A stretch of 46,080 nt of DNA from positions 1-46,080 of IMG/VR virus record IMGVR_UViG_3300030061_001316; one strand, 5' to 3'. Shown in pieces: positions 3 through 41,018 of this stretch. The DNA comes from a virus. Position 1 is the stretch's first letter. Each line of letters opens with the position of its first letter. Below the pieces are notes generated by a model. It was not told the origin of the DNA. It saw only the letters and a program-made list of their open reading frames with translations, and did no database searches. The translations under genes were made by a program, and so were the position numbers.

Positions 3-3000
3 TACGACTTAACACATATACATCCTAAGATGCATACGCCTACTATCGGATTCGGTATCACTATGGCGGCAGATACAGTATGGCACATGGATGGTGGTTT
101 CCATCCGGGCGGCTCATGGCTAGACAATCAAATTACATTTAATCCACCACACGCGGGTAAATCTGCTGCTAGAGTATTGAGTAGCAATTGGGAACGTGCA
201 AACCAAATACATCCTACTGCGTTTAGAACTTCGGGTGTGCTTACAGGACGCATTCTAGATTACATAGGAAATGGTAGCGAGGCCGTAGCAACAGCAGATG
301 CAAAGATGGAATACATCGTAGTAGATGCGACACGTTGTCAGAACGGTGAAGAACTCGCTACTGTACTAGGCGCTGCAATAAACGCATTCCCCGGCGCTGG
401 GGCACTCAAGTCTCTTGGTGGCACACACATGCCGTCTATGGGTAATGCGATGCGTCAAGATAGATACGGGTGGATACCGCTTGCTGGCACATCCACTTAC
501 GTAAATAATAGTGCTACTGGCAATTACATAGATAGCCCATCGAGCGGTTCACAAACAACATTAGAACAATTACCCACATCGGGTTGGATTAGATTACATC
601 AAGGGACTAACACTAGATTCGCTTGCTATCACTCTAGGGAAGTATTAGCAGATAGTAGCGATTGGAAAGTCAGGTTCTATCTCGCACCTAATAGATTAAA
701 CGGCCTAAATAAACTAGAAGCGCCTGAAACGTGGGAAGTACTCAAAGATGGGAGTGGGTCTTTCAGTGAGGCCATTTCTAGTTCTTATACCCTTTATGTA
801 TGGAGCAAAGCGGGTACAATGCGTTTCAATAACGAGAATGTATCAGCACGTGACCACATGACGCAAGTTCACTTCTCAGGTATTGTAGACGCTGTTGATA
901 GAACAAAACCAATAGGTGCAGTTGGTTGGCATGGTGAAAGATATTCTTATCTGAATAGTTTGAAAATAAGTACTACTATAACAAAGAATACCAGTTCTAC
1001 AACAACTAGCGGATATGCTGCTGGGTTAGGTGCATACCATGAGATGCTTAACTTCTCACCATATGGAACTGCTGGTACAGTAATGAATGTGCATAGCAAC
1101 ATACCTGTTGTAGCACCTATGCAGGGTAGTCCCGAAAGTACACCTACAATTGACGGTATAGGAAACGCATTAGGTACACATTTAGTTAAATCGGGTTTTT
1201 ATTCTAAATTAGATTTAACGAGCGGTAGTAGTGCTGGTTTAGGTTGGGATACTTACACTTACAACTTCAATGATACAGATGAAGCGGGTAATGCTAATCA
1301 ATGGGTTGCACCTACTAACTACACCACTACATTACCTAAGGAACTAACAACACCACAGGGGTTGTACAGTAGCGCATTCCTAGTTATCAGTTACGAGTGC
1401 GAGAGTTCATTAATTGCAAAGTTCGACAGAGATGCAATAACTGCAAACGGTGACTGGTTACAAGTCATAGGACAAGGTACTAACCCAATCACATACGCCG
1501 GTACTACACAATGGGATGAAAGATTTCACGGTCAAGATAGATTTATCGCACCCGCAAACGCTGGACCGAATGTAGAGGCTCTAATCGTTGAAGGTACAAC
1601 TGTACCTGTCGGTACACCGTCTAATGGGGACTGGGCTGATACTTTATTCTCAGGCGGCTCAGGCTCATACTTTTACAGTACCACACCTACTGATTTGAAG
1701 TTGCAAAACGCTACACCGGGTCTAAACAAGACAGGCGATTTACTGTTCGACCTAGACCATTCTGTTGGTTCTGCATTACTACATACAGACGATGCATACC
1801 GAAACGTATCTACTGACAAATACTCAGGTACAGACCACAGCGATGGGTGGCCTAACAAATATTGGATGGGGGATGTGAACGCATTACAAATGTATAGAGA
1901 TTCAGCCGCAAAGAACTTTTCAGTAGAGAATATAGTGTGGAAGAGAATGGATGGTGGTAACCTCAGTATGCCAGCAATCAACGCTCGCGGTCTTGGCGCA
2001 GTGCCATGGATGACACGTGTGAAGAGTAACACCGCATACCAAACAGGTGAGAAGATATACGGTAACGTAAGGTTCTCTTTCGAGACCACAAATAGTGCTA
2101 TGATGCCTATACTACAAGCACAAGAGTTAGCGCACCCCGAACTTATGCGTAAGCACCCATACAAGATTGGTAACGTGTTAAACATACCAAATGAAGAGAT
2201 ACAGTTCCAAAGCATCACCGTAAGAGATGAGACAGGGCAAGTACACAAGATAGAGGGCGGTAGTCCACTGGGGACTATCATACGTGGATTCCGTATACCT
2301 GAGAACAGAGGTGTGAAAGGTAACGCACCTGCACTTGCTAACAGTGGTAAGATACCTAACTTGAAGGTACAGTTACCTGACCCTAACAGTATACCGGGCA
2401 ACATAGTTGTACGTTCAGGATTCGACCCAATACAAGCATACCAACATGAAACAATCGGTACAGGCGGTATGATACACCCTGATATGGGCGAGAGCCACAT
2501 CGGACATCTATTCGACAATAGTGTAGCAGGTCCACGTCAAGCACCTACATATGAGAACCACAATTGGGAACGTATCAATCCAGTAACCTTTGATTCAGAA
2601 CTAGGTGCATGGAATGACAACTCTCCATTGCAGACTAGTTATGAGTTACATGACCGCACATTATTCTTCCATGTCACAAAGATGGGGCACACACATACAC
2701 ACAGGTATCCAACTGTCTATACACATACAAGTGGTATAGAGAACGACGTAGTATCTGTAACAGCGTGGGATAGTAGCACAAGCATACTTACTATCGATAC
2801 AACACACGGAAGCGATATACTCAATGCAAACGTCTTTGATGCTGGATTCGGCACTAAAGAAGATACTCGCAAGTTCCTACGTGTGTACAACCCGACAACT
2901 GATGAAGGTGCTGTATGCACATACATTGCGCAAAGTGATAATACATTAGATGTTGTTGGAGATGTCAACTTCGCCACATTCATGGCAGGTCAAACTGTTA

Positions 3001-6000
3001 CAAATCTAAAGGTAGTACCTTCGTATTACATACCTGCTGGAAGCAACAGGTTCTTCGCAGCACGTCGATTACGTGACCATGCAGAGGTTAGTGGTAACTC
3101 ACCTGATATGGCTAATACATTGTATCATGTATCGGGACAAACGGTAGGATACGACGCATATAGCAAGCCGGTATTGACACCTATGCCATTCCCAAGAATG
3201 GGCCATCACTTCGTCACACCAACAATGCCGATGTTGCCCGGACACTGGGCACACCCTGCTTACCAAAGCCTATACAGGAGACATTTGATTGATTACCAAA
3301 TGACAAATGGTTTTGTTGATTCTAGTAACTTTGCTAGTTATGCAACTGCTACAAATAATAAAAGCGACATTAACTCTTCATTCAATTTAGATAATAATTT
3401 ACACGCTATGGACGCGGAGATTAACTTTAGTGGGATAAATGCAGCCCCCAGTGGTCCCAGCGACATACACGGAGGGGCATTCACCCTTATGTTCGAGAGC
3501 GGTGTGAAATATGACGGTTACGGTGTGTTAGCGTCATCTGACGGTACGAGTACATCATTAGCAGCAACAGTGAACAAAGCGGGAGGGCATAGTATTGTTC
3601 TTGAGGCTGCTAGTGAGTACACACAAGGTAGACACTTCCCTGACCCTGCTGAAGTAGGTGCTTACCAAATAGTCATACAACCTAATGTATTCCATAATCA
3701 GTTAGTCGGTTACCATAATAATTCAGGTGCTGCATTAACCAGTCAACAGATAAACACCGTTATTGGCATAAAAATGGATAGTGATGGTAATGTCGATGGT
3801 GCTAAGGGTGGTATGACATTAGTGTTAGCAAAAGCAACACAAGCAGATGTGCGTGGTTGTGAGGTATTCATCAACGAAGCGATATTAGATATCAGTAATG
3901 ACCAAGGTAGTCAGTTTACAAATATACCACCGTTGATGTTGTATAACCATATAGGAGTACAATTAACAGAAAGCCCTGCATTTACTAGAAAGGGTTTCCC
4001 ATATAGCAAAATGTTTAGCGATGCGACCCCTGCACATACTCTACATGTACCGTGGTGGAGTATATTACACAAGAATGCAATCAAACATAACGGGTCAGCA
4101 GTTTCAGATGCAACAAATTACAGAAAATTATCTCAATATAGCCCCGAAGATTACTACATGTTTATGAGAAGTACCTTTGGAAGTATAGGAAGTCAGTTAA
4201 CAATTAACGGATATACCTCAATGTATTTTGATATATACGATAAATACAATAAAAGTATAAGTCTAAATCCAAAATGTACTGTTGTATCTTTCAATACTAG
4301 TGGAACAATAGTCGTAGATAACGCAAATACATTCCCAATGTATCCTTATTATAAACAAGAAGTGCAGTATACAGGTAAAAATGGAACAATTTATTCTAAA
4401 GAACTAACAAGTGTTAGTGGAGATACGGCTGCGACAATAAATATACCCAAAACATTGACATTAGGTGCTAAATCAGGTGATGATGGATTTTGGGATAACA
4501 TATATGATGGTGCAATACTTACTTTAACACATAGTTACAATACATTACCAGCAGGTGAAATACTTACAAATAAACGTAAGAGTGTATTTGCGAATATATT
4601 ACCTGATATAATTAATGGTAATCAAGATACACATAGTAATCATGTACCTGATGCATTCCTATGTATGTGGCATCCTAACCTTGGTAGACCTAATACATAC
4701 TTCTCAGATAATACATCTCGTAGTTGGAAAGGTAATGCAGTTAACAAAGCAGCATATAATTCATTACCTGAACATTTTGAAACTATACATTATCATGATT
4801 TCACACATGCAATGAGTACAGGTCCATTTGATTTCTTAATTAAAAGACCCGATGTAAATAAAACAGGTGTAGTGACAGTAGGTAATAGTACACACGATGC
4901 TGGTGGAACTAATTTAATGCTTAGTGGATATTGGCCTTGTGGTAGTCGTGGTGGTCCACATGCAAGTAAACTAGACTTGTATGGTATGGCATCTATGCCA
5001 TGGAATGTGCATGAAACGTCCACAAGTGCTGATTTTGCCTCTAATAGCAACTTCCAATGGATAGATGCCGATGATGACGGTAGTTATGCAGTATCTTCGG
5101 GTATTACAACTGGGGCTATGGACCAGTATAGAAGAAGACCGTATGGTTACCGTAACGCTGTACGTCAAGCCTATAACAGACCAAGATACGACATTAATAG
5201 TGTGCGTGCAATATACGAAGCAGATGCTTCAAGCGCTGCTGGTACTAACACTTTGAACTACGATGCAGGTCCACTTGTACAAACAGAATCATACAGTAGT
5301 GCATGGGCATACGGTGGAGGTAGTGGTCTTAGTTCTGCAACTAAACCTATTACATACGTTGGTGTGATGGAGAGGCAGACGAACTTCACAGGTATGCTCA
5401 ACCAAGACCAAGAGGGTTGGCAAGTCAGATACAGCGATGGTCGAAGGATGACTAGACCATTTGGTACACCAGTGCGTACGATACGAAACCCAACGCGTGT
5501 AGAAAGAGACTGGTGGGGTGATGAAGAGGGCAAGGGCGAAACAAGCCTATCTGTGGCCTCTCAGTACTATCTGATAGATTGGTGGGGTAATGAGCGTGGA
5601 GAGGACGTAAGGCGTGCTCCAGTGCGTGGATTCGGTATCAGACCATCATGGGACTGTGGTGACGCGTATGACAACGGTAGCAATACCGCACATGCACGTA
5701 TTTGGAACAGTGGTAAACCTCTATTCAACCTAAAGGGTATAGCAGATTTAACCAATGGAAATATATCGGTAACTGACGGATACACAATACCTAGATTCGG
5801 TGGTGTGTTGAATAACATCAACAACAATAATTCTAATGAATTGGTAGATGTGTTTGCACCTGTGCATTCACTGCGTGTGGGTGATATGGGTAACGGAAGA
5901 GGTGTGAGATACCCAACTGCGTTCAATGAAGAAATACTCACAGAACTATCAGCACCAGTGCATAAGACTGGTGTGGTTCTCAGCCATAATACTGCTGAAC

Positions 6001-7142
6001 CATTGTTCGGTGATGGGTTGTTACGTCCCCGTAACGCTATACTGCAAGCCGATGAAGTCAAGAGGGGCATCAGTTCTAAACTCGGTATAGACGACAATGG
6101 GTTGTTAAAATCAGAAGCAACTGTCAGTGATAGAATAGAAGAGATAGTTGGTACAAGCGTACACAAAGATGTCATTTCACGCACTAGCCCAAGAATAGGG
6201 ATAGACGCACAAGTCGTAGAAGGTGTAGAACAAAACCACGTGGTCATCAACACAGAAGCACATAGTTTACACACTGACAGAAACATAGGTCAGAGAGTTA
6301 TATTAGAAGGTGGGTTACAAATTGAAGGTAGTCTTACAGATTTAGATTATACAGATATAAGTTTTACAAGACAAGGTGCTGGCTCTACAATTTCTGCTGT
6401 ACATAGATACTCACACACTAACGTGTTTAGACCATATGGTGGTTCATACATAATAGAGACAAAGAGTTATGCTGGTTTGTTCGATGATACTGGTTGGGGT
6501 GTAGCGTCGTTAACTGGAAGTGGTGATACTAGCAACCCTTACCAAGATGCTGATGAACACAATACAGATACTGTACCGAATAACGAATATGATAATATCG
6601 TAAAGTTCCTAGTCAGACCTGTAAGAGTTTTAGATTCCAAACACACAGAAGTATATCGTATACACAATTCACTTCACACGGGTTCTCCACAGTACACCCA
6701 AAATTATCTACACGCAACATCCGGCGGTAAATATGGTATATTCACATATGAAGTGGAGAATGGTAGAACAGCCACTGATAATATACCAACCGGCAGGGGG
6801 CTACCTGATGGTAACGGACCATACATACCGATATTCGTATTCGACCATACTGGTGCATTTACGTCAGCGTCTAGTTTTGGTCCAAAGATACCCGGTGCTG
6901 GTGTAACAGGGTTTGATAGCGCTACTTTGAAATCTAGTGTATCTAGAGTTATTGTAAGTGAGAACACATTACAACATCACCGTTCAGATGCTCCTAGAAG
7001 AAGGCAAGAGGAGGATACAGACGATGAACTCAAGAGAAGTGATTACACAGTAAAACCTAGATTTAGCCAGTCTTTACACAATAAAGGACACAAAGGTGAT
7101 GTGGACTTCAATGTCACAGACCATAGCGGAGATGGTGCGTAA
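3..7142 (+). CDS. Giant virion structural protein, 5' end outside window
   Basis: The reading frame is open to the left edge. The first ATG is at 30, but in-frame sense codons precede it and no SD is visible, so the gene probably starts upstream. From that ATG it is 2370 residues. No enzymatic motif was recognised. The protein is rich in Gly, Ser, Thr, Asn and Tyr, with many short beta-type segments, as expected for a large extended tail or surface protein. Base composition is mosaic: about 3290-4950 is much more AT-rich than the flanks, suggesting an exchangeable module. Its stop overlaps the next ATG (TAATG), tying it to the tail-hub-like gene. Likely a tail or adsorption-apparatus protein (inference from size, composition and position); the exact role is unknown. 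Confidence 0.75.
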   Translation, partial: YDLTHIHPKMHTPTIGFGITMAADTVWHMDGGFHPGGSWLDNQITFNPPHAGKSAARVLSSNWERANQIHPTAFRTSGVLTGRILDYIGNGSEAVATADAKMEYIVVDATRCQNGEELATVLGAAINAFPGAGALKSLGGTHMPSMGNAMRQDRYGWIPLAGTSTYVNNSATGNYIDSPSSGSQTTLEQLPTSGWIRLHQGTNTRFACYHSREVLADSSDWKVRFYLAPNRLNGLNKLEAPETWEVLKDGSGSFSEAISSSYTLYVWSKAGTMRFNNENVSARDHMTQVHFSGIVDAVDRTKPIGAVGWHGERYSYLNSLKISTTITKNTSSTTTSGYAAGLGAYHEMLNFSPYGTAGTVMNVHSNIPVVAPMQGSPESTPTIDGIGNALGTHLVKSGFYSKLDLTSGSSAGLGWDTYTYNFNDTDEAGNANQWVAPTNYTTTLPKELTTPQGLYSSAFLVISYECESSLIAKFDRDAITANGDWLQVIGQGTNPITYAGTTQWDERFHGQDRFIAPANAGPNVEALIVEGTTVPVGTPSNGDWADTLFSGGSGSYFYSTTPTDLKLQNATPGLNKTGDLLFDLDHSVGSALLHTDDAYRNVSTDKYSGTDHSDGWPNKYWMGDVNALQMYRDSAAKNFSVENIVWKRMDGGNLSMPAINARGLGAVPWMTRVKSNTAYQTGEKIYGNVRFSFETTNSAMMPILQAQELAHPELMRKHPYKIGNVLNIPNEEIQFQSITVRDETGQVHKIEGGSPLGTIIRGFRIPENRGVKGNAPALANSGKIPNLKVQLPDPNSIPGNIVVRSGFDPIQAYQHETIGTGGMIHPDMGESHIGHLFDNSVAGPRQAPTYENHNWERINPVTFDSELGAWNDNSPLQTSYELHDRTLFFHVTKMGHTHTHRYPTVYTHTSGIENDVVSVTAWDSSTSILTIDTTHGSDILNANVFDAGFGTKEDTRKFLRVYNPTTDEGAVCTYIAQSDNTLDVVGDVNFATFMAGQTVTNLKVVPSYYIPAGSNRFFAARRLRDHAEVSGNSPDMANTLYHVSGQTVGYDAYSKPVLTPMPFPRMGHHFVTPTMPMLPGHWAHPAYQSLYRRHLIDYQMTNGFVDSSNFASYATATNNKSDINSSFNLDNNLHAMDAEINFSGINAAPSGPSDIHGGAFTLMFESGVKYDGYGVLASSDGTSTSLAATVNKAGGHSIVLEAASEYTQGRHFPDPAEVGAYQIVIQPNVFHNQLVGYHNNSGAALTSQQINTVIGIKMDSDGNVDGAKGGMTLVLAKATQADVRGCEVFINEAILDISNDQGSQFTNIPPLMLYNHIGVQLTESPAFTRKGFPYSKMFSDATPAHTLHVPWWSILHKNAIKHNGSAVSDATNYRKLSQYSPEDYYMFMRSTFGSIGSQLTINGYTSMYFDIYDKYNKSISLNPKCTVVSFNTSGTIVVDNANTFPMYPYYKQEVQYTGKNGTIYSKELTSVSGDTAATINIPKTLTLGAKSGDDGFWDNIYDGAILTLTHSYNTLPAGEILTNKRKSVFANILPDIINGNQDTHSNHVPDAFLCMWHPNLGRPNTYFSDNTSRSWKGNAVNKAAYNSLPEHFETIHYHDFTHAMSTGPFDFLIKRPDVNKTGVVTVGNSTHDAGGTNLMLSGYWPCGSRGGPHASKLDLYGMASMPWNVHETSTSADFASNSNFQWIDADDDGSYAVSSGITTGAMDQYRRRPYGYRNAVRQAYNRPRYDINSVRAIYEADASSAAGTNTLNYDAGPLVQTESYSSAWAYGGGSGLSSATKPITYVGVMERQTNFTGMLNQDQEGWQVRYSDGRRMTRPFGTPVRTIRNPTRVERDWWGDEEGKGETSLSVASQYYLIDWWGNERGEDVRRAPVRGFGIRPSWDCGDAYDNGSNTAHARIWNSGKPLFNLKGIADLTNGNISVTDGYTIPRFGGVLNNINNNNSNELVDVFAPVHSLRVGDMGNGRGVRYPTAFNEEILTELSAPVHKTGVVLSHNTAEPLFGDGLLRPRNAILQADEVKRGISSKLGIDDNGLLKSEATVSDRIEEIVGTSVHKDVISRTSPRIGIDAQVVEGVEQNHVVINTEAHSLHTDRNIGQRVILEGGLQIEGSLTDLDYTDISFTRQGAGSTISAVHRYSHTNVFRPYGGSYIIETKSYAGLFDDTGWGVASLTGSGDTSNPYQDADEHNTDTVPNNEYDNIVKFLVRPVRVLDSKHTEVYRIHNSLHTGSPQYTQNYLHATSGGKYGIFTYEVENGRTATDNIPTGRGLPDGNGPYIPIFVFDHTGAFTSASSFGPKIPGAGVTGFDSATLKSSVSRVIVSENTLQHHRSDAPRRRQEEDTDDELKRSDYTVKPRFSQSLHNKGHKGDVDFNVTDHSGDGA

Positions 7143-8554
7143 TGGGGTTAATTCAATCATCTAAAGGACGTTTTAGTGAAACCCTGACAACTATAATGCA
7201 TGATATTAGGCAACCAGTGTTTGTGGATAACGCAGTACACTATGCAAAAATAGAGCCTAGAAGCACAGGCAAATCTAGAGTTACTATCGAAGCAGTAAAT
7301 GCTGACAATTATGACTTAGCCAGTGAACGTACATACTCATTAGTCGAATCGGAATCTAGCGTTATCATAACACATACCGAAACTGATGGTCATTCACTGA
7401 AAAGCGATGTGTGGTCTAGTAAAGGCAAAAACACAGTTACAGATTTGTTGTATAGTGAAGACAACCCGGTAGACCGGATTATGAAGAGTACAGTTACATC
7501 CACAAATAACGGTTTACAATTAGATTTGCGCAATATGAAAGGTCGGACTTTGAAAGATATAGGTTTCAGAGATGAAAGAGTACACCTTGCACAAAGTATA
7601 GATATTGGATTTAGGACTACTGATTTAGCAGTTAGGTTATCACAAAACGTACCGAATGCAATTACTGCGGTAACAACAGGTTCGCACATTACAACGACTA
7701 AAGGTAGTAATAACAGACGTAAAGAAAGTAATACATTCCTAGCATCTGATTTTTATGGTGTGAATCTAATTACAGCCTTACGCTTTGTTTCAAGGCACGA
7801 TAATCGTGTTACTATGGTTAACAGATACGGTGTATTGAATTACGTACCCTTCAATTATGCAGATATTAGTAGAAGAATAGACAGCAGTATACGATTCGGA
7901 AGGAAAAACACTAACCCTGTTGATAACATAGAAAACCGTGTAACAGTGCAAGGCAAACAAATAGCGCTAAATGAAGACTTGATTCTCACAATGGATGATA
8001 GGAGTAGACAACAGAGTAAATACAATACTGATGTATTAGAAAGTCTAACTCCTATCTTTGATGAATCTATTACAAGCATATCACGTGCAAAAACAGTAGC
8101 AAGGCAGATATTGAAAGCAAACGCATCTACAACAGGCTCTTTACAATCTAGAGGTCATCCTAATCTATGGGACGCAAGACCCGGTGATATAGTAGAATAT
8201 GAAGGTAAAAGATTAACCATATTAGAAGCACAACATAGGGCGGCTAGTGCTTTGAGTGATTTTGTCTTCCTTAGTGTTGAATCGGGGCTAGAAGGTGTAT
8301 TACAGGGTATAGAAAGTGGAAGCATAGCATCTTCATCTGTGAGAAGGCCGGATAAAACAAATCAGATTACAGATGAGAACTTTTCATTCTTTGACAGTCT
8401 AGAAATAGTGGTTACACCTACTATTACAGTTACTGAATTATCACATGCTGGTTTCCTAATTGGCCGAAATAGCGATAGAGGGGTGCTAGGTGGGAACAAC
8501 GAGACTATCGGACTCATCGAAAAAGAAATTACAATAATAGAAGGGGAATCATAA
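7142..8554 (+). CDS. Putative tail hub / baseplate protein (gpD or gp27-like)
   Basis: 470 residues, starting in a TAATG overlap with the giant gene. Around residues 260-380 the arrangement resembles the hub-type baseplate proteins of contractile and siphovirus tails: a segment with 'ENRVTVQGKQ', a helical stretch that includes 'AKTVARQILKA', then 'LWDARPGDIVEYEGKRLTI', where W-x-x-RPGD-x-V is typical of late-control-D/gp44-like proteins. The resemblance is by eye and the N-terminal half is not recognisable. Position between the giant structural gene and the fibre genes fits a baseplate or hub role. It could instead be another minor tail protein. Confidence 0.55.
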   Translation: MGLIQSSKGRFSETLTTIMHDIRQPVFVDNAVHYAKIEPRSTGKSRVTIEAVNADNYDLASERTYSLVESESSVIITHTETDGHSLKSDVWSSKGKNTVTDLLYSEDNPVDRIMKSTVTSTNNGLQLDLRNMKGRTLKDIGFRDERVHLAQSIDIGFRTTDLAVRLSQNVPNAITAVTTGSHITTTKGSNNRRKESNTFLASDFYGVNLITALRFVSRHDNRVTMVNRYGVLNYVPFNYADISRRIDSSIRFGRKNTNPVDNIENRVTVQGKQIALNEDLILTMDDRSRQQSKYNTDVLESLTPIFDESITSISRAKTVARQILKANASTTGSLQSRGHPNLWDARPGDIVEYEGKRLTILEAQHRAASALSDFVFLSVESGLEGVLQGIESGSIASSSVRRPDKTNQITDENFSFFDSLEIVVTPTITVTELSHAGFLIGRNSDRGVLGGNNETIGLIEKEITIIEGES

Positions 8555-8898
8555 TGCCAGCAAACGACCATTTGAAACGATTAGTGATAGAAACAATAGC
8601 CGATAACATCAATGAAATGGTTATTGGGTTTGATGGTACTCCCGCTACAAGCAGTGATGGTAGTGCCGGTAGACCAGCGATAACAATAACACCTACTGTA
8701 CGTATCATGGATAATTCAACATTACTTGTAGAGGGTAATTTAACAACAGCAAATACATTCGACGAAACACTCAAAGAAGTATTCGTGCAATTAAGGGGTA
8801 CAAGCGGATTCACCCCGATTACAAGACATGTTTTCAATCCGATAAAGAAAACATCGACAAACGAAGTAGTAATCCAATTAATGATAGAGGTAAAGTGA
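8554..8898 (+). CDS. Small conserved-looking tail-region protein
   Basis: 114 residues. The ATG overlaps the previous stop (TAATG), so translation is probably coupled. The N-terminus is helical ('HLKRLVIETIADNINEMVIG'). The rest alternates strands and Gly/Thr-rich turns and contains 'VFVQLRGTSGFTPITRHVF'. No family was recognised. Placement directly before the first fibre gene suggests a baseplate wedge or fibre-attachment protein; this is inference from position only. Confidence 0.7.
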   Translation: MPANDHLKRLVIETIADNINEMVIGFDGTPATSSDGSAGRPAITITPTVRIMDNSTLLVEGNLTTANTFDETLKEVFVQLRGTSGFTPITRHVFNPIKKTSTNEVVIQLMIEVK

Positions 8899-8902
8899 TA
8901 TT

Positions 8903-11341
8903 ATGGTAGAAAACGTCATTTCAGGACACACAACAACATTGACTGATGGGGATTATATTCTCTCTCCATCTTTAACTAATTTATTTGAAGGTATACACGG
9001 TAATGGAATCCTGATGTATGAAGACACAGCAACAGGGGACAGTAATAGAAACGCTAAGGCTACAAGCCCCGGATACGTTTCGGATAATGGTACTAACTCA
9101 ATCATAGTAAGGGGTGGGTATGCTGTATTAGACGGGTTAATCATACCTTTTGGTAACATAGCCTCAGGTGCAACGCATACCATTACACTACAACAGAGTA
9201 CTATTGAAGGTAGTACGTCTGCGCTAACTAGCGGTCAATCTTGTCTGTTAGTCGTTTATGTGTGTAGTGATACAGAATCTCCAAGGTATGGTGTCCACAT
9301 AGAACAAGGTTCTCCTGTATCTACCGGATTTCCAGTAACGCCTGAAAGTTTCTTGAGTGATACAAGTGGACTAAACGGTAGCCTAAACCTTGCATCTAAA
9401 CAAAGCACAGTGCTTGCAGTTGTGAAGTGCATCTACAATTCTGGTGCTGGAGATTTAGATATGGAGGTAGATACTGTATATGATGCACGTACTTTCATAA
9501 AACCTAGTCCTATTTATTTCAGCCCAATGACTACTGGTTCTCTTGGTAACCAAACAGGCAGAATAGACTCAACAGCAGACCTTGACGGTATGCATGGTGG
9601 TGGAGATGAAGTTGGGGGATTATCCTCATCCAACTTTGGTGGTATGTGGATGTCATACAGTTACGGTACAGATGGCTCAGATGGAGACCACGTGTTGTAC
9701 TTTAGCGGTAAACAAGGTGGTACGAGAAGGACACACAGAATCGGCCCGAATAAAATTAGTGTATTGAATACAGCACAATCAGTTAGATTCGATGGTCCAA
9801 ACATATTCAACGCAACACCAGCAAGCGGAGACATCAACCTCACACCTACTGGTACATTCCCTCCAAGCCACATGGTTATAGTGAATAACGCACAGACTAG
9901 TACACACAAAGTTATCTTCGACCCTAGTGGATTGAGTCTTAATGCTGCTACTGTCGGTGACGTAAACCCTTCATCCTCTGCTATATTCGTTTACAATGGT
10001 TCAGCGTGGGTGAAAGTATTCGCAACATCATCAGCAGTAGGTGCGAGTGGTTCAGCGGGTGCTATACAGATAAGCGACGGTAGTTCATTCTCCAACGACG
10101 CGCAACTCACATTCACCACAGCGAGTAACACACTCAACGTGGGCGGTCCGATAATTATGGCAGGTTCATTGCTAAAAGCCCCAACTGGTTTAGAGTTTAC
10201 AAAAGTAGACGATAATCCGGGCGGTACAGCGTTTACTCTATGGGTGGATGAAGATGATAGTGACCAACTCAAGTTCGGCACATCAACAGTTCAATTGACT
10301 GATACTGCCGGATTGATGGATATAAACGGGCTTACAGAAGTGGCAATAGCATCGGGCGACTATATTGCCTTCTCCGACGAAGGGACTAGTAATGACCCGA
10401 CAAGAAGAGAATCGATAGATGATGTGGCAACGTTGTTTGCAGGTACAGGTTTAACCGCATCTAGCGCGGTAATCAATATCGACGCTAACCAAGCGGGTAT
10501 CACTAGCATAGGTCCAGCAGGTACATTAACTGTAAACCAAGACTTGACCGTAACAGGTAATTTGATTGTAAGTGGTTCATCTACAACATTGAATGTTGCT
10601 ACGCTAGAAATTGAAGATTTACACGTTCTCATAGCAAAAGGTGGTAATGACTCTGCTACTGACGGTGCGGGCATCATCATAGACTCATCCGACGGAGACA
10701 AAACGATACTTTTCAGCAACAATGCAGATGCGACCCTAGAGGGATTGAAAGTCAACCAACACTGGTTACCTAGTAGTGACAGTGCACTAAATCTAGGAGC
10801 AACTGATGCATCTAACCCTCTCAGATGGGCTAATGTGTATGCTGATAATTTAGATACTACTGACTTAGTGGTCGATACAAGTTTAATCAAGACTGACTCT
10901 GCAACTAATCGAGTTGGTATTAACCAAGCATCGCCTGATGCAGCGTTTCAAGTAGATGAGTTAGGGTTTGGTTATGCTACTGGTAGTCGTACGGGTAGTG
11001 GTACATCCGCTGTTACAGTAAACCTGTATCAGAGAACTAAGTTCAAGGCTGCTAAATTATTAGTCTCACTTGAAAACACAACTAATGGTGCAGAAGTCTA
11101 TGAAACGGCAGAAATGGTTGTTACACATACGGGCACTACAAACACAGGAACTGACATTGCTACGGAAAACGTATTCCTCTCTGTATATGGTGTAGTAACA
11201 ACCACTGGAACACGGCAAGGGGCGTATCAAACAGGCGTTACGGGTAGTGGCGACAGCCAATACATTCAATTGGTGGTTACCCCTACGGTGGCTAACCAAG
11301 ACGTTACGGTACGCGTATCATGGCAAGCGTTAACAATATAA
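8903..11341 (+). CDS. Tail fibre protein A
   Basis: 812 residues, starting 4 bases after the previous stop. The N-terminal third may be the attachment part. The middle is a low-complexity beta-rich shaft with 'LTVNQDLTVTGNLIVSG' and 'LNLGATDASNPLRWANVYA', phrases I associate with tail fibres of marine cyanophages and pelagiphages. The last ~115 residues (from about 'NLYQRTKFKAAKLLVSLEN') form a compact module whose pattern recurs at the end of the next protein: an AAK motif, an E-x-x-E-MVVTHTGTTN-like strand, then 'YIQLVVTPT'. Such a module probably trimerises or caps the fibre (inference). Role: host receptor binding. Confidence 0.8.
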   Translation: MVENVISGHTTTLTDGDYILSPSLTNLFEGIHGNGILMYEDTATGDSNRNAKATSPGYVSDNGTNSIIVRGGYAVLDGLIIPFGNIASGATHTITLQQSTIEGSTSALTSGQSCLLVVYVCSDTESPRYGVHIEQGSPVSTGFPVTPESFLSDTSGLNGSLNLASKQSTVLAVVKCIYNSGAGDLDMEVDTVYDARTFIKPSPIYFSPMTTGSLGNQTGRIDSTADLDGMHGGGDEVGGLSSSNFGGMWMSYSYGTDGSDGDHVLYFSGKQGGTRRTHRIGPNKISVLNTAQSVRFDGPNIFNATPASGDINLTPTGTFPPSHMVIVNNAQTSTHKVIFDPSGLSLNAATVGDVNPSSSAIFVYNGSAWVKVFATSSAVGASGSAGAIQISDGSSFSNDAQLTFTTASNTLNVGGPIIMAGSLLKAPTGLEFTKVDDNPGGTAFTLWVDEDDSDQLKFGTSTVQLTDTAGLMDINGLTEVAIASGDYIAFSDEGTSNDPTRRESIDDVATLFAGTGLTASSAVINIDANQAGITSIGPAGTLTVNQDLTVTGNLIVSGSSTTLNVATLEIEDLHVLIAKGGNDSATDGAGIIIDSSDGDKTILFSNNADATLEGLKVNQHWLPSSDSALNLGATDASNPLRWANVYADNLDTTDLVVDTSLIKTDSATNRVGINQASPDAAFQVDELGFGYATGSRTGSGTSAVTVNLYQRTKFKAAKLLVSLENTTNGAEVYETAEMVVTHTGTTNTGTDIATENVFLSVYGVVTTTGTRQGAYQTGVTGSGDSQYIQLVVTPTVANQDVTVRVSWQALTI

Positions 11342-11342
11342 T

Positions 11343-11350
11343 GGAGGTGA
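11343..11350 (+). promoter_or_regulatory. Strong Shine-Dalgarno site for fibre gene B
   Basis: GGAGGTGA lies immediately after the TAA of fibre gene A and before the ATG at 11357. It is one of the best SD matches in the structural block and fixes that start. Confidence 0.75.
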
Positions 11351-11356
11351 AAAAAC

Positions 11357-14300
11357 ATGGGTACAGCAAGAAACTTTAGCGTAAAAACAGGATTAGATGT
11401 CGATAGTGGAGACTTAACCATTGTCAGTGGAAATCTATTAGTTAATGCAGGTTACATTGATATCGATAACATCAAGATTGATGGTCAGACGATTTCTACC
11501 GTAGCAAACAATGATGCGATTAACATCACACCTAACGGTACTGGTTCAGTAGTTATCAGTAAAGTAGACATAAATGCTGGTACAATTGACGGGGCTACTA
11601 TCGCTACATCTGATGTTACAGTAGGTAGCAGTAAGACCCTTGATGTGTCGGCTGGAACTCTAACGACATCAGCAGCACAAAAGAAAGCAATAGTTGAAGG
11701 GGTGGGGGCTGACACCGATATAGGTGCTTTTGAATTAAGAGCACAGACATTTGAAGCAGATGTAGCAACTGGTACTGCTCCTTTTACCATAGCGTCAACA
11801 ACTAAGGTCGCTAATCTGAACGTAGATAAATTAGACGGGTCGGATTGGTCAGCAGCACCTGCTACCGCTTTTGGTAGTGACGGTGCAGGTGTGGATGTTA
11901 CATTTCATTCTCTAACAGCGGGCGACAATATGCTATGGGATGCTAGTGAGGAGCAACTAGTTATCACAGGTACTAACGGAGCCACTGCTCTGAATGTAGC
12001 AGATGGTAACGTCACTGTCGCTGATACACTCACTGCCACTAACATAGGGGCTTTCACCGCAACGGGTGCTATCGACTTTGGCAGTCAAAATATGACAAAT
12101 GTTGACATCGACAGTGGTACTATTAACGGTACTACAATAGCGGGTGCTTCAGGTTCTTTCACTACTTTACAAGCATCTAGCAGTACTACTTTAGTAACAC
12201 TTGAAACGAGTTCAACGGCTAAAATTAATGGCTCTGCTTTAGAAGGTACTACTAATCTTCAAGTTAATGGTACTCCAAAGGTTGGTGGTGCGAGTGGTAG
12301 TACACTTACAGCAACAGAAGTAAGGTTATTCACAGACATATCCAATGATGACATTGCTGGTTCTTGGAACGCATATACGGGTATGTCTAACGTAGTAATT
12401 TTAGAAAACGCAGAGGATGTAAAAGCGGGCGGTCAAGGAGTTGTTCACACAGTTGGTACTGGTGCTGATACAGGTAGCACTTGGGCTATTGGTAGAATGT
12501 CAGGAACTAGTGACATTTTCACATTGGGTTACTTTGCGGATAATTGGGACCAAATAGGATATGCAAATGCTAGTAATAATGGACAAGACTCAGAAAATCC
12601 GTTCTTATCTGCTAATTCTAGACTTAGCCTAAATGCTTCAGGTGATATGTTCCTTAATGCAAACGGTGCATCATTCAACTTCACAGGTGCTACTAGTAGT
12701 GCTGCTGCAAGAAAGATAGGCTTCAAAGCATCAAGTAACGGTGTTACCGCATCGGGCGACGAAGTGTATGTGTTACCTGTAAGTTTCCCCAGTGGAAATA
12801 AAATATTACAATCATCTTCTAGCGGTGCTCTTTCTTGGGTAGCCGCAGGTTCAGGTGAGTCAAATCAAACTCTAACAACTGGTAACGGTATTAGCGGTGC
12901 TAATAGTGGTTCGACAGGTGACTTCACAATCGCAGTAGAGGCTGCTCAAACCACAATTACATCTTTACTAGCAACAGATATTAAAATCGGTGAAGACGAC
13001 CAAACCAAGATTGATTTCGAGACTGCCGACGAAATACATTTCTACGCTGCAAACGCAGAGCAAGTATATGTTGCAGATGGTATATTTGGTCCACAAACAG
13101 ATAGCGATGTTGATTTAGGCTCTACTTCAGTTAGATGGAAAGATACTTTTGTTGATACATTAACAGTCACAGGCGATGTTGCTGTTGGTGATGACTTAAC
13201 GCTGCTTTCTGACGATGCAATTCTTGGTTTCGGTACTAACACCGATGTCACACTCACACATATACACAACACAGGACTGCGACTTAATGCTGCAATGGCT
13301 CTACAATTTAGAGATAGTGGATTATCAATATCCTCTACTTCAAACGGTCAGTTGGACATAGACGCTGATGCTGTTGTTGACATAGCCTCACAAGTCGTTG
13401 CTCTCACAGGGACAACAGGAGTAGCAGTAGTTTCCCCATCCGTAGTCTTCTCTGACCCCGCCTCAGGCAAACCAGTAGTCGAGATTAAGAACACCACCAA
13501 CGATACATCCTCAGCAGAGTTGAAGTTCGTAAAGGACAAGGGTGCGGCTGGTGCTGATGCTGATGATGTCGGTAAGATTACCTTCGTAGGAGACGACGCG
13601 ACACAGGCTCAGACTAACTTCGCTCAGATTCTCGTTGAGATATCAGAGGCAGACGACTCAGATGAAGCAGGGAAGATGTCTTTCCTTGTTGCAGAGAGTA
13701 ATGGTACAGACACAGCGCTCACAGCAGGTTTGGTTCTTGAAGGGCAACACGCTACTGATGGTGTAGTAGATGTTACCATTGGTGCTGGTACAGGCTCAGT
13801 CACCACTATTGCTGGTGATTTAACAGTCAACGGCACAACGACCACAGTTAATTCAACAACCATACAACTTGATGACAAGAATATAGAATTGGCTAATGGA
13901 TTAGGAAACGATGCTGCTATTGACGGTGGCGGTATAACTCTCATATCCAGCGGTGACAATAAGACATTTAACTATGTAAACGCAAATACCGCTTGGACTA
14001 GTTCTGAGAACTTTGACATAGTATCAGGTAAAAAATACAAACTTGGTGGTGCGGATATATTCACCAATGCTACAACACTAGCATCCGGTGTAGTGACATC
14101 TAGCCTTACACAAGTTGGCGCTTTAAACGCAGGTAGTATCACATCTGGCTTCACTTCGATAGATGTGGGTAGTGGGGCGATTACCACTACTGGTCTAATT
14201 TCAGGAGGCTCATTGGACATAGACGATGTGTTAATCAACGGCACTACCATTGGTCACACAGATGATACCGACCTAATCACACTGGCAAACGGCGTAGTCA

Positions 14301-14848
14301 CCGTTGCTGGTGAAATATCAGTAACCACGCTCGACATTGGTGGCACTAACGTAACATCGACAGCCGCAGAACTGAATCTAGTTGACGGTATCACAGCAGG
14401 TACAGTATCAGCCAGTAAAGCAGTTATTGTGGACAGTGATAAAGATGTAACAGGATTTAGAAACGTTACAGGCACAGGTGCTTTACAAGGCGCTACACTC
14501 AGCGTTGATGCAGTAGCAGTGCTGGATACAGGACGTGGCGACAGTCAAAACATATCAGGAGCAACTAGTTTATTCAATATACCTAAGGCTACATACAGAG
14601 CCGCTAAAATAATTTATCATATTAAGAAAGATGGGGCTGATGATACTGATGCAGGTGAGATTCTCATCACATACGATGGTGGTGATGATACCGCTTATCT
14701 TACTCACTATGCGGAAATTAGCACAGGTTCTTCGACAGTTGGAACTTGGGATGCTACGGTCAATAGCGGTAACATTGAAGTGAGATTTACACCGGCAAGT
14801 AATGGTGCTCACACGTATAGTATGCATGTAACTCAACTTATAACATGA
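11357..14848 (+). CDS. Tail fibre protein B, long
   Basis: 1163 residues with a strong SD (11343-11350). The N-terminus 'MGTARNFSVKTGLDV' matches the start of the third fibre protein ('MGTQKDFVVKKGLVV'), pointing to a shared attachment peptide. The shaft is a long run of beta-rich repeats such as 'DLTVNGTTTTVNSTTIQLDD', a phrase very typical of marine phage fibres. The C-terminal ~110 residues, from 'ATYRAAKIIYHIKKDG' through 'EILITYDGGDDTAYLTHYAE' to 'NIEVRFTPAS', match the tip module of fibre A in layout. Likely a trimeric receptor-binding fibre. The gene has the repetitive composition expected of fast-evolving adhesins. Confidence 0.8.
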   Translation: MGTARNFSVKTGLDVDSGDLTIVSGNLLVNAGYIDIDNIKIDGQTISTVANNDAINITPNGTGSVVISKVDINAGTIDGATIATSDVTVGSSKTLDVSAGTLTTSAAQKKAIVEGVGADTDIGAFELRAQTFEADVATGTAPFTIASTTKVANLNVDKLDGSDWSAAPATAFGSDGAGVDVTFHSLTAGDNMLWDASEEQLVITGTNGATALNVADGNVTVADTLTATNIGAFTATGAIDFGSQNMTNVDIDSGTINGTTIAGASGSFTTLQASSSTTLVTLETSSTAKINGSALEGTTNLQVNGTPKVGGASGSTLTATEVRLFTDISNDDIAGSWNAYTGMSNVVILENAEDVKAGGQGVVHTVGTGADTGSTWAIGRMSGTSDIFTLGYFADNWDQIGYANASNNGQDSENPFLSANSRLSLNASGDMFLNANGASFNFTGATSSAAARKIGFKASSNGVTASGDEVYVLPVSFPSGNKILQSSSSGALSWVAAGSGESNQTLTTGNGISGANSGSTGDFTIAVEAAQTTITSLLATDIKIGEDDQTKIDFETADEIHFYAANAEQVYVADGIFGPQTDSDVDLGSTSVRWKDTFVDTLTVTGDVAVGDDLTLLSDDAILGFGTNTDVTLTHIHNTGLRLNAAMALQFRDSGLSISSTSNGQLDIDADAVVDIASQVVALTGTTGVAVVSPSVVFSDPASGKPVVEIKNTTNDTSSAELKFVKDKGAAGADADDVGKITFVGDDATQAQTNFAQILVEISEADDSDEAGKMSFLVAESNGTDTALTAGLVLEGQHATDGVVDVTIGAGTGSVTTIAGDLTVNGTTTTVNSTTIQLDDKNIELANGLGNDAAIDGGGITLISSGDNKTFNYVNANTAWTSSENFDIVSGKKYKLGGADIFTNATTLASGVVTSSLTQVGALNAGSITSGFTSIDVGSGAITTTGLISGGSLDIDDVLINGTTIGHTDDTDLITLANGVVTVAGEISVTTLDIGGTNVTSTAAELNLVDGITAGTVSASKAVIVDSDKDVTGFRNVTGTGALQGATLSVDAVAVLDTGRGDSQNISGATSLFNIPKATYRAAKIIYHIKKDGADDTDAGEILITYDGGDDTAYLTHYAEISTGSSTVGTWDATVNSGNIEVRFTPASNGAHTYSMHVTQLIT

Positions 14849-14876: not shown

Positions 14877-16487
14877 ATGGGAACACAGAAAGATTTTGTA
14901 GTAAAGAAAGGATTAGTAGTAACTGAGGACATAGAACTCGGACACGCAACTGATACAACGATAGCGAGAGCATCTAGTGGGGTCGTTTCCATTGAAGGTA
15001 ATAACGTCATAATGGCATCGAACAATGTGAGTGCACTAACTGATTCTACATCCGCAGCAATTGGTATTGGAACAATCGAATTAGGTCATGCTAGTGATAC
15101 AACGATAGCGAGAGCGAGTGCCGGAGCGATAACCGTCGAAGGTACAGCAGTACTGTTAGGAGGCGCACAAACAGGGATTACTACTGATTTTAACACAGGA
15201 AGAAAAGTTGGTAGAGATGCACATAATCACATAGATTTCAGTACGGATAATGAAATCCATTTCAAAACTAATAACGAAACTCCCGTCATAAAAATGAAAG
15301 CAAGTGGAGAAATAGAAGCAACGAGCCTAGATATCTCAGGTGATGTTGATGTTGATGGTACATTAGAAACTGATAACCTAACCGTTGGTGGGCAACAAGG
15401 CACTAACGGTCAAGTTCTGACTTCAACAGGTAGCGGTGTGCAATGGGACGACGCAGGTGGTGGTGCTTCTACTCTCAATGATTTAACAGATGTAATCAGC
15501 AACACCACCAATTTTACAGACAGTATTCTAATTTCGCCGGATGGTGCGGCCCCGCCTCAAGGCGGCACACTAAGTAGTGCAACAAATAACGTAGGTATAG
15601 GAAAAGATGTATTTGGTGATGCTATGACCTCAGGGCATAGTAACGTAGCCTTAGGAACAGAAGCAGGTAAGGCGGTTACTAGCATGCACGAAGCGGTATT
15701 AATAGGCCACCATGCAGGTAAAGGACTTACTTATGGTTCGGACAATGTTGCTATTGGTGCTTATACCTTAGACGCAGCCTCCTCTGCATCTGCTAACGTA
15801 GCCGTTGGATGGAGTGCCCTTAGTGGTATCACAGGTGGAGGTTCTAACGTAGCAATCGGGTATGGTGCTGGTCAAACAGTAAGTAATAATACTAACAACG
15901 TCTTTGTTGGAAGGGGTGCAGGTAATAGTCTTAATTCTTCTAATAACGTAATTGTAGGTTATCTCGCAGGTGATGGTATTTCAAATGGGGGTAATAATAC
16001 TTTAATCGGTTATCAAGCAGGTGGTGGAATGTCCGGTAATGCGGATTCAAACATTTGTTTGGGGTACAATGCGGGGGATAATATCACTACGGGAGATAAT
16101 AACCTTGTTATTGGTGCGGCTGATGTTGATAGTGCAACAGGTGACGACCAAATATCCATCTCATCGGGTGACGGGGGAGTAACTTGGATAAAGGGAGATG
16201 CAAACGGAATCAAGGCTCTCAAGATTAAGGTAGTACCCATAAACGGAACAACACAATTGACAGATGCACAATCTGGTTCCTATGTATATGTCTACGGTAG
16301 CGGAGTACCAGAACTTCCAGATGGTGCTGAATCAGGACAACAATACACCATAGTAAATAACAAAGGTTCAACGGTAACAGTTGGTGCTGGTAATAGTAAC
16401 AGTTTCATAGGTACTGCGACTGTGGATGACGACAAGGCCAAGACCTTCGTAGCAGTAGAGACTAATTTATGGTTTGCCATAGGGTGA
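14877..16487 (+). CDS. Tail fibre / adhesin with YadA-like head repeats
   Basis: 536 residues. It starts 'MGTQKDFVVKKGLVV', like fibre B. Residues ~19-45 and ~67-93 are a direct repeat of 'ELGHA(T/S)DTTIARAS'. A linker region follows, then residues ~237-415 contain about eight units of the type N-V-x-x-G-x-x-A-G, for example 'SNVAIGYGAG', 'NNVFVGRGAG' and 'NNTLIGYQAG'. This is the consensus of the left-handed beta-roll head of trimeric autotransporter adhesins (YadA/Hia). The C-terminus ('YTIVNNKGSTVTVGAG', 'VETNLWFAIG') is a small beta domain common in phage fibres. Role: receptor binding (inference from architecture). Confidence 0.8.
   Translation: MGTQKDFVVKKGLVVTEDIELGHATDTTIARASSGVVSIEGNNVIMASNNVSALTDSTSAAIGIGTIELGHASDTTIARASAGAITVEGTAVLLGGAQTGITTDFNTGRKVGRDAHNHIDFSTDNEIHFKTNNETPVIKMKASGEIEATSLDISGDVDVDGTLETDNLTVGGQQGTNGQVLTSTGSGVQWDDAGGGASTLNDLTDVISNTTNFTDSILISPDGAAPPQGGTLSSATNNVGIGKDVFGDAMTSGHSNVALGTEAGKAVTSMHEAVLIGHHAGKGLTYGSDNVAIGAYTLDAASSASANVAVGWSALSGITGGGSNVAIGYGAGQTVSNNTNNVFVGRGAGNSLNSSNNVIVGYLAGDGISNGGNNTLIGYQAGGGMSGNADSNICLGYNAGDNITTGDNNLVIGAADVDSATGDDQISISSGDGGVTWIKGDANGIKALKIKVVPINGTTQLTDAQSGSYVYVYGSGVPELPDGAESGQQYTIVNNKGSTVTVGAGNSNSFIGTATVDDDKAKTFVAVETNLWFAIG
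14951..15115 (+). repeat. Direct repeat of 48 codons inside fibre gene C
   Basis: A 21-base block at 14951-14971 is identical to 15095-15115, 144 bases (48 codons) away. The encoded peptide DTTIARAS recurs in frame. The surrounding codons are only similar, so this is an old or diversified tandem duplication of a fibre-shaft unit. Confidence 0.85.
15585..16121 (+). repeat. Coding repeats for N-V-x-x-G-x-x-A-G units
   Basis: Roughly eight protein-level repeat units of about 20-25 residues, degenerate at DNA level. They encode the YadA-like head of fibre protein C. The alignment was done by eye. Confidence 0.6.
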
Positions 16488-40659: not shown

Positions 40660-41018
40660 TCTTCCTCACCTTCTATGTCGTCAGCGAACTTCCAAATCCT
40701 ACACATAATATCCAAGTCACGTATCATGGCTCGCCTGAAGTCCTCTCTAGTGACGTAGTTGTGGTAGTCAATATCAGACCACTCACCTCTTGAGTCCTCT
40801 TCCAGTTGCCGTAGAACGTGGATGGAACATGTCTCAATTTCCTCGTCATCATCGTCATACTCGTACCGTGTATCGTATTCCAACGAGCGTATCTCTTGGT
40901 AAAGAGTCTCTTTCCACCCTTCTATCATGTGCTTGTGGTATTGGATACACGCCTCAGTGATTGCCACATCTCTGAACTCTGACCATCTCTCTATGAGAAT
41001 CTTGGTCTGCATACTCAT
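40656..41018 (-). CDS. 120-residue acidic unknown protein
   Basis: Starts in an ATGA overlap with the DUF932 gene. Has a run of acidic residues in 'YEYDDDDEEIETCS' and ends GEEE. Mostly helical ('RRAMIRDLDIMCRIWKFAD'). Acidic character could mean a DNA-mimic or a charged partner protein, but no evidence beyond composition. Confidence 0.6.
   Translation of the reverse strand: MSMQTKILIERWSEFRDVAITEACIQYHKHMIEGWKETLYQEIRSLEYDTRYEYDDDDEEIETCSIHVLRQLEEDSRGEWSDIDYHNYVTREDFRRAMIRDLDIMCRIWKFADDIEGEEE

What the first reader, a model, noticed from the sequence alone, without database searches (positions are those of the whole stretch)
8903..14848. Two fibres share a C-terminal tip module of marine-phage type
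Fibre A and B end with the same layout: an AAK strand, E-(I/M)-L/V-x-(T/V)-x-x-G, and a TP-containing last strand. Phrases such as 'LTVNGTTTTVNSTTIQLDD' are familiar from cyanophage and pelagiphage fibres. This suggests exchange of receptor-binding modules between viruses of bacteria and of archaea in the same water.
Basis: partly seen in the sequence, partly recalled or inferred. Interest (0 to 1): 0.5.

Follow-up and report, generated by a model that had tools for sequence, protein, structure and literature searches.

The report
Archaeal virus fibres built from cassettes
Two tail-fibre proteins of an uncultured marine virus, probably of archaea, end in the same folded domain that ends fibres of viruses of marine cyanobacteria, and one of them also carries a fibre segment much like one in viruses of SAR11 bacteria, so fibre parts are shared across the archaea-bacteria divide, though the end domain itself shows no sign of recent swapping across it.

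Summary
Fibre A (812 aa) and fibre B (1163 aa) end in homologous domains: weak by sequence (BLASTP E 0.002; profile-profile 84%), clear by predicted fold (eight strands in the same order, both best matched by the C-terminal domain of T4 gp9, Z 13-14). B's tip occurs in cultured cyanophages, so the stated refutation ("no hits outside archaeal viruses") fails. One correction: the 'LTVNGTTTTVNSTT' phrase lies in the shaft, not the tip. On the tip tree the 21 distinct magrovirus B tips form one clade apart from 35 phage-type tips: no sign of recent interdomain exchange of the tip. Exchange is plain elsewhere. Within magroviruses, B-tip class and gene layout switch on a backbone tree (one clade rejected, p 1e-11), and a 108-residue shaft cassette is 93% DNA-identical between distantly related viruses. 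Across domains, a 69-residue shaft cassette is 79% identical in protein to cultured pelagiphage HTVC033P and up to 95% to contigs without the window's other genes, but synonymous codons agree little more than by chance, so that sharing is not fresh. Receptor binding by the tip is unproven; the gp9 domain is described as a trimerising and fibre-docking part.

The parts
8903..11341 (+). fibre A, 812 aa; residues 1-385 conserved with the neighbouring tail genes, more variable from about residue 386
10940..11338 (+). C-terminal tip of fibre A (residues 680-812), predicted eight-strand domain of T4 gp9 C-terminal type
10547..10720 (+). S1-like shaft stretch of fibre A (residues 549-606), 42% identical to S1 of fibre B; residues 541-648 match 3 Synechococcus phage records at 33.6%
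10056..10057 (.). point in fibre A where contig 3300030202_001476 (L028/L271) changes from 100% DNA identity (4946-10056) to 87% (10057-11398); recombination or assembly chimera
11357..14848 (+). fibre B, 1163 aa, a mosaic of stretches shared with different relatives
12908..13189 (+). shaft stretch of fibre B (residues 518-611), 74% identical to the fibre gene of contig L112; residues 508-611 42% to L113
13805..14127 (+). S1 shaft cassette (the LTVNGTTTTVNSTTIQLDD phrase); 93.2% DNA identity to a distant magrovirus (L047/L192), up to 56.5% protein identity to records in the phage collection
14060..14566 (+). stretch matched by a pelagiphage-like fibre gene (residues 902-1070; 69% over 170 aa to L113)
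14204..14410 (+). S2 core cassette (69 aa): 95% protein identity to L112, 79% over 62 aa to pelagiphage HTVC033P gp66
14489..14845 (+). C-terminal tip of fibre B (residues 1045-1163), cyanophage-type predicted eight-strand domain, class B1

Best explanation
The window is part of a magrovirus-type head-tailed virus, very probably of marine archaea. Fibres A and B are tail fibres (trimer state inferred), each closed by a C-terminal eight-strand domain with the fold of the T4 gp9 C-terminal domain and of several tailspike ends (modelled). That domain is a family shared by archaeal and bacterial tailed viruses (shown by profile and fold for B, by fold mainly for A). I think it most likely folds and registers the trimer and forms the end surface of the fibre, so that the shaft before it can be rebuilt (inferred). 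Fibre B's shaft is put together from cassettes that recombine: among magroviruses (shown from contigs), and at some earlier time between magroviruses and phages of cyanobacteria and SAR11 (sharing shown; transfer, direction and date inferred). The tip shows no recent swap between domains.
For: Tip homology and fold. Phage tips in cultured cyanophages. Magrovirus gene set and synteny; layout as in the ICTV profile. Tip tree: B tips one clade. Within-magrovirus exchange: B1/B2 class needs 3 changes on the backbone tree (2 forced by well-supported branches), one B2 clade rejected p-AU 1.2e-11; S1 93.2% DNA identity over 324 nt to a virus whose p470 and p114 are 39% and 61% identical in protein. 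Cross-domain cassette: S2 79% in HTVC033P, up to 95% in contigs with no match to the window's non-fibre genes in their flanks. gp9 C-terminal domain described as fibre attachment site and as responsible for proper folding and trimerisation (PMC10253068, passages).
Against: A's tip has no tblastn hit in the phage collection, and its profile score is modest (14.4 bits, E 0.14 at a database of 100,000). Tips of fibre A are not clearly more conserved than its shaft (median 52.6% against 49-53% over 253 pairs), so a constant cap is not shown. PMC8825819 (passages) calls a gp9-like domain, XD1, a spacer; the passages do not say which gp9 domain is meant. On the S2 tree one magrovirus clade is not rejected (p-AU 0.31), so one old sharing event suffices. 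BLAST borders of the cassettes are not all in register. Host is inferred from gene content only.
Confidence: 0.6

Rival explanations
1. The tips are receptor-binding domains passed back and forth between viruses of bacteria and archaea in surface water.
For: The tip family is found on both sides; fibre genes are mosaic; similar C-terminal domains end tailspikes.
Against: Magrovirus B tips are one clade apart from phage-type tips, which are 24-33% identical to the window's B tip over the alignment; no synonymous trace of recent transfer in the best cross-domain cassette. Receptor binding was not tested.
Confidence: 0.15
2. The tip is a docking end: as on T4 gp9, its C-terminal domain holds another fibre, so A could carry B or another protein rather than touch the host.
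For: The best fold match for both tips is T4 gp9 residues 168/170-284, described as the attachment site of the long tail fibres (PMC10253068, passages); A and B genes are adjacent in the related contigs long enough to show both.
Against: Other good matches are tailspikes and a tail fibre (6e1r, 6c72, 7xy1); no partner domain was identified; a shared fold shows no function.
Confidence: 0.25
3. The shared tips and shafts are vertical inheritance from an ancient tailed-virus ancestor, with no transfer between domains.
For: One clade for the B tips; synonymous codons in S2 near random agreement with HTVC033P; one magrovirus clade not rejected for S2.
Against: S2 in the window is closer in protein to phage-type copies (up to 95%) than to those of farther magroviruses L041 and L044 (74% and 67%), and the best match in near kin L060-L063 is 31-33%; PolB stays near 22%.
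Confidence: 0.15

Closest known systems
C-terminal domain of the tail-fibre-like protein of Synechococcus phage S-SM2 (ADO97449) and other cyanophages
   Same: Same tip family as fibre B: 30% identity by tblastn, TM-score 0.86 over the query.
   Different: Its host is a cyanobacterium; the 10 kb stretch around it has no match to the window genes tested at E 1e-5.
C-terminal domain of T4 gp9 (PDB 1qex)
   Same: Eight-strand sandwich, Z 13.4 (rmsd 2.3, 111 aligned) for B and Z 14.0 (1.9, 109) for A.
   Different: 13-20% identity; gp9 is a 288-residue baseplate protein, not a long fibre; no gp9-type Pfam family found in the fibres.
Tail fibre gp66 of Pelagibacter phage HTVC033P (HMO-2011 type)
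   Same: Carries the S2 cassette, 79% over 62 aa, at three places in the record.
   Different: Does not end in the tip domain by eye; a phage of SAR11 strain HTCC1062 (PMC9038755, passages).
Tail adhesins of haloarchaeal hafunaviruses
   Different: There a glycine-rich T-even-like adhesin; here a gp9-type sandwich and cassette shafts. Not compared by sequence.

Membership tests
Marine-phage tail-fibre tip family (defined here from 35 distinct phage-type tips) | Match to a profile that contains no magrovirus sequence | tested here: met
   fibB tip 57.1 bits, E 7.8e-15 at Z 100,000; best of 4000 shuffles 10.6. The profile's rows were collected by likeness to B or to a profile holding it.
Marine-phage tail-fibre tip family (defined here from 35 distinct phage-type tips) | Same for fibre A | tested here: inconclusive
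   14.4 bits, E 0.14, above all 4000 shuffles and in register; no tblastn hit in phages
T4 gp9 C-terminal domain fold | Eight-strand sandwich that superposes over nearly the whole domain | tested here: met
   Predicted models: B Z 13.4, 111 of 113; A Z 14.0, 109 of 125
T4 gp9 C-terminal domain fold | Sequence match to a Pfam family of gp9 type | tested here: not met
   Pfam scan of the whole fibres at E<=1 lists no such family
T4 gp9 C-terminal domain fold | Trimer, and binding of another fibre | not testable with these tools
   Only monomers were modelled
Magrovirales | PolB, clamp loader, chaperonin, structural and replication genes in opposite directions | tested here: met
   ICTV description of Aoguangviridae
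Magrovirales | Placement in a tree with named Magrovirales genomes | not tested
   No named magrovirus was among the records shown for PolB (25 of 502)
Receptor-binding protein | Binds a host surface structure | not testable with these tools
   No experiment

The most novel reading that the evidence does not exclude
Viruses of marine archaea and phages of SAR11 and cyanobacteria draw on one pool of fibre cassettes: the magrovirus gets shaft pieces from phages across the domain border, while a gp9-type end domain acts as the common closing part that lets foreign shafts fold.
Probability: 0.4. Interest if true: 0.6.

Novelty: new member of a known kind. Interest (0 to 1): 0.42.

Why it matters
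Tail fibres often decide which cells a virus can reach. If fibre segments cross between viruses of bacteria and of archaea, the host border is more porous for virion parts than for replication genes, and magroviruses (the family Aoguangviridae has no cultured member) get a testable handle on host recognition. Fibre mosaicism is a known kind of evolution (recalled), and adhesin likeness across domains has been stated for haloarchaeal viruses; I saw no statement of the magrovirus-pelagiphage cassette or the B1/B2 switch in the listings and passages.

Tried and rejected
Tip exchange between domains as recent events: not shown. Chance likeness of fibre sequence: set aside by shuffles and by fold. 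Pfam: no family for A or C, and for B only a plant-virus coat protein at E 0.048, under its cut-off, taken as chance; no PHROG family for A or B at E<=0.1; no chain of the Protein Data Bank at E<=1 with the tip profile. Host by chaperonin in cellular genomes: 32 stretches matched a pattern, none confirmed; as chaperonins are in nearly all cells this scan says little. Literature: PMC10160649 (a magrovirus paper) holds no 'tail fib'; PMC12451623 holds no 'fiber' or 'fibre'; the original magrovirus paper is not held; 'Poseidoniales' with 'tail fiber' gives one paper, by its title on another element (listing only).

Rows and labels: of the 75 tip loci, 31 match non-fibre window genes; L041 matches fibB and fibC only and was counted with them as magrovirus (32); 43 match no non-fibre window gene tested in their flanks at E 1e-5 and are called phage-type; in those 43 records chaperonin was found in 0 and PolB in 1. 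Their hosts are not known one by one, and most are short fragments. Tips: 62 distinct of 70. In the first S2 tree L235, a magrovirus contig (that of L050), was labelled phage; corrected. L222, also a magrovirus contig, stood among the phage-type rows kept but not among those used. The S2 trees used the first 70 of 92 and the first 66 of 91 phage-type rows by order of the BLAST list; copies of the window, minus-strand hits and matches under 55% identity or 50 columns were dropped; HTVC033P itself is not among the rows of the second tree.

The L028 junction at 10,056/10,057 was sought in other contigs by an exact 37-base pattern taken from L028 right of the junction: only the same contig came back, so an assembly chimera is not excluded and I do not lean on it.
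Full report
What the window is. Large ORFs lie on the + strand in the first 17 kb and mainly on the - strand after that. Pfam finds family B DNA polymerase, an AAA ATPase of clamp-loader type, an ERCC4 nuclease, a PD-(D/E)XK nuclease, a TCP-1/cpn60 chaperonin and a SNF2 helicase, all on the - strand. This fits the gene set and two-way layout that ICTV describes for Aoguangviridae, magroviruses assigned to marine archaea and not yet cultured (PMC10768690, whole text). PolB matches 502 phage-collection records; the 25 shown are haloarchaeal viruses and cyanophages at 22-23% identity. The host is inferred, not shown; a chaperonin scan of cellular genomes gave no confirmed relative.

The observation. 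Fibre A and fibre B are at the stated places, and their last 115-130 residues are alike: 24% over 85 aa, E 0.002, and 84% probability, E 7.5e-6, by profile-profile comparison. The B tip finds Synechococcus phage S-SM2 (two records), phage C48C1 and marine virus AG-341-P01 by tblastn at 30-33%. S-SM2's own tip finds 17 records, 13 of them named Synechococcus phage, Cyanophage or Prochlorococcus phage, S-SM2 itself twice. A profile of 35 phage-type tips scores fibB 57.1 bits and fibA 14.4, with 10.6 for the best of 4000 shuffled tips; its rows were found by likeness to B, so it is not an independent test. The A tip alone finds nothing in the phage collection. AlphaFold2 models have mean pLDDT 93.0 (B) and 89.0 (A) and show eight strands each in the same order. 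Both are best matched by T4 gp9: Z 13.4, rmsd 2.3, 111 aligned for B; Z 14.0, rmsd 1.9, 109 aligned for A; next come a Klebsiella phage baseplate protein (9f4a), tailspikes (6e1r, 6c72) and a tail fibre (7xy1). Among predicted viral structures B's tip has 122 matches at E<=1e-3, with S-SM2, S-CAM7, S-TIM5 and P-SSM2 proteins among the 50 shown.

The phrase LTVNGTTTTVNSTTIQLDD is in the shaft of fibre B, in a cassette (S1) about 210 residues before the tip; fibre A has a 42% counterpart.

Is the tip exchanged between domains? A scan with a mixed profile gave 75 loci: 32 magrovirus-like and 43 with no non-fibre window gene in their flanks. The tree of 62 distinct tips puts the 21 magrovirus B tips on one branch (100/97); class B1 (14; 95/76), class B2 (7; 100/99) and A (6; 100/99) are each one side of a branch; A with B as one clade is not rejected (p-AU 0.48). 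The tree has only 117 columns and warns of long branches, and sampling was by likeness to B. Within these limits there is no interleaving with phage-type tips.

Is anything exchanged? Yes. (i) Within magroviruses, B1 sits on one gene (728-1198 aa among complete ones), while in the 15 B2 rows two shorter genes hold that place. On a backbone tree of 36 rows (25 distinct) from p470, p114 and fibA residues 1-385, the class changes at least 3 times (2 forced by well-supported branches), and B2 as one clade is rejected, p-AU 1.2e-11. (ii) S1 is 93.2% identical in DNA over 324 nt to contig 3300025769_000299, whose p470 and p114 are only 39% and 61% identical in protein to the window's; two more contigs (L046, L193) match it at 85% with the same left border, 13,805. 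Other matches stop at 13,788-13,789 (L029, L043, L061) and start at 14,114-14,117 (L029, L050), which looks like recurrent cassette borders, but L050 also runs to 13,836 and L043 starts at 14,180. (iii) Contig L028/L271 is 99.1% identical to the window over 1092-4945, 100% over 4946-10,056 and 87.4% over 10,057-11,398; no second contig confirms the junction, so it may be an assembly chimera.

Across domains. Of the 80 best, 1 is a magrovirus contig and 79 have no match to the window's non-fibre genes or fibA N-terminus in flanks of up to 4 kb; 57 of the 79 match at least one non-fibre gene of pelagiphage HTVC033P, and 22 match neither set. Protein identity to the window reaches 95% (L112, with 78% DNA identity). 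In cultured HTVC033P the cassette is 79% identical over 62 aa, and the fibre of L113, whose neighbouring genes are 71-88% identical to HTVC033P's, matches fibre B residues 902-1070 at 69%. Yet identical residues use identical codons in 18 of 48 cases against each of two HTVC033P copies, where random codon choice gives about 16 (maximum 23-25 in 2000 draws), and in 35-53% against the 12 closest IMG/VR copies; phage-type copies among themselves have a median of 47%, magrovirus copies against the window 44-82%. So the protein seems held by selection and the sharing is not recent. In magroviruses the cassette is patchy: 66-100% in some, best matches of 30-51% in others, including near kin L060-L063 at 31-33%. 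The S2 tree needs 5 label changes but does not reject one magrovirus clade (p-AU 0.31).

How it likely works. For T4 gp9 the C-terminal domain (167-288) is described as the attachment site of the long tail fibres and as responsible for proper folding and trimerisation (PMC10253068, passages). PMC8825819 (passages) describes jelly-roll modules of CBA120 TSP4 and T4 gp10 as assembly motifs, but a gp9-like domain, XD1, as a spacer, without saying in what I saw which gp9 domain is meant. I hold a folding and registering end domain to be the likeliest role, with docking as the chief rival and receptor binding not excluded. Against a constant cap: fibA tips are no more conserved than shafts over 253 pairs (52.6% median against 49-53%, N-terminal part 60%), and in near kin the tip is 63-87% identical to the window's.

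Known or new. Likeness of tail adhesins between archaeal tailed viruses and phages has been stated for haloarchaeal viruses (PMC8651126, passages), and fibre mosaicism is a known kind of evolution (recalled). The magrovirus case did not come up in the listings and passages, which cover open-licence papers only.

Noticed in passing
window 14877-16487: Third fibre-like gene (536 aa) after A and B, with repeats of the NVAIGYGAG type; it matches four PHROG families, among them virion structural and tail spike proteins, and does not end in the tip domain by eye.
   Followed up: no
L027/L055 and L050-L063, downstream of fibre A: In 15 of 36 backbone rows the fibre B place is held by two genes, an N-terminal one (538-695 aa) without the tip and a C-terminal one (744-805 aa) with a B2 tip.
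   Followed up: partly
window 4946-10057 against L028/L271: 5,111 bases of 100% DNA identity to another contig end inside fibre A, with 87% identity beyond; only one contig shows it.
   Followed up: partly
window 41015-42223: DUF932 protein (Pfam E 3.6e-12) among the - strand genes of the magrovirus contig.
   Followed up: no
window 30-7142: A 2370-aa ORF without a Pfam match at E<=0.01, with relatives in many of the magrovirus contigs.
   Followed up: no
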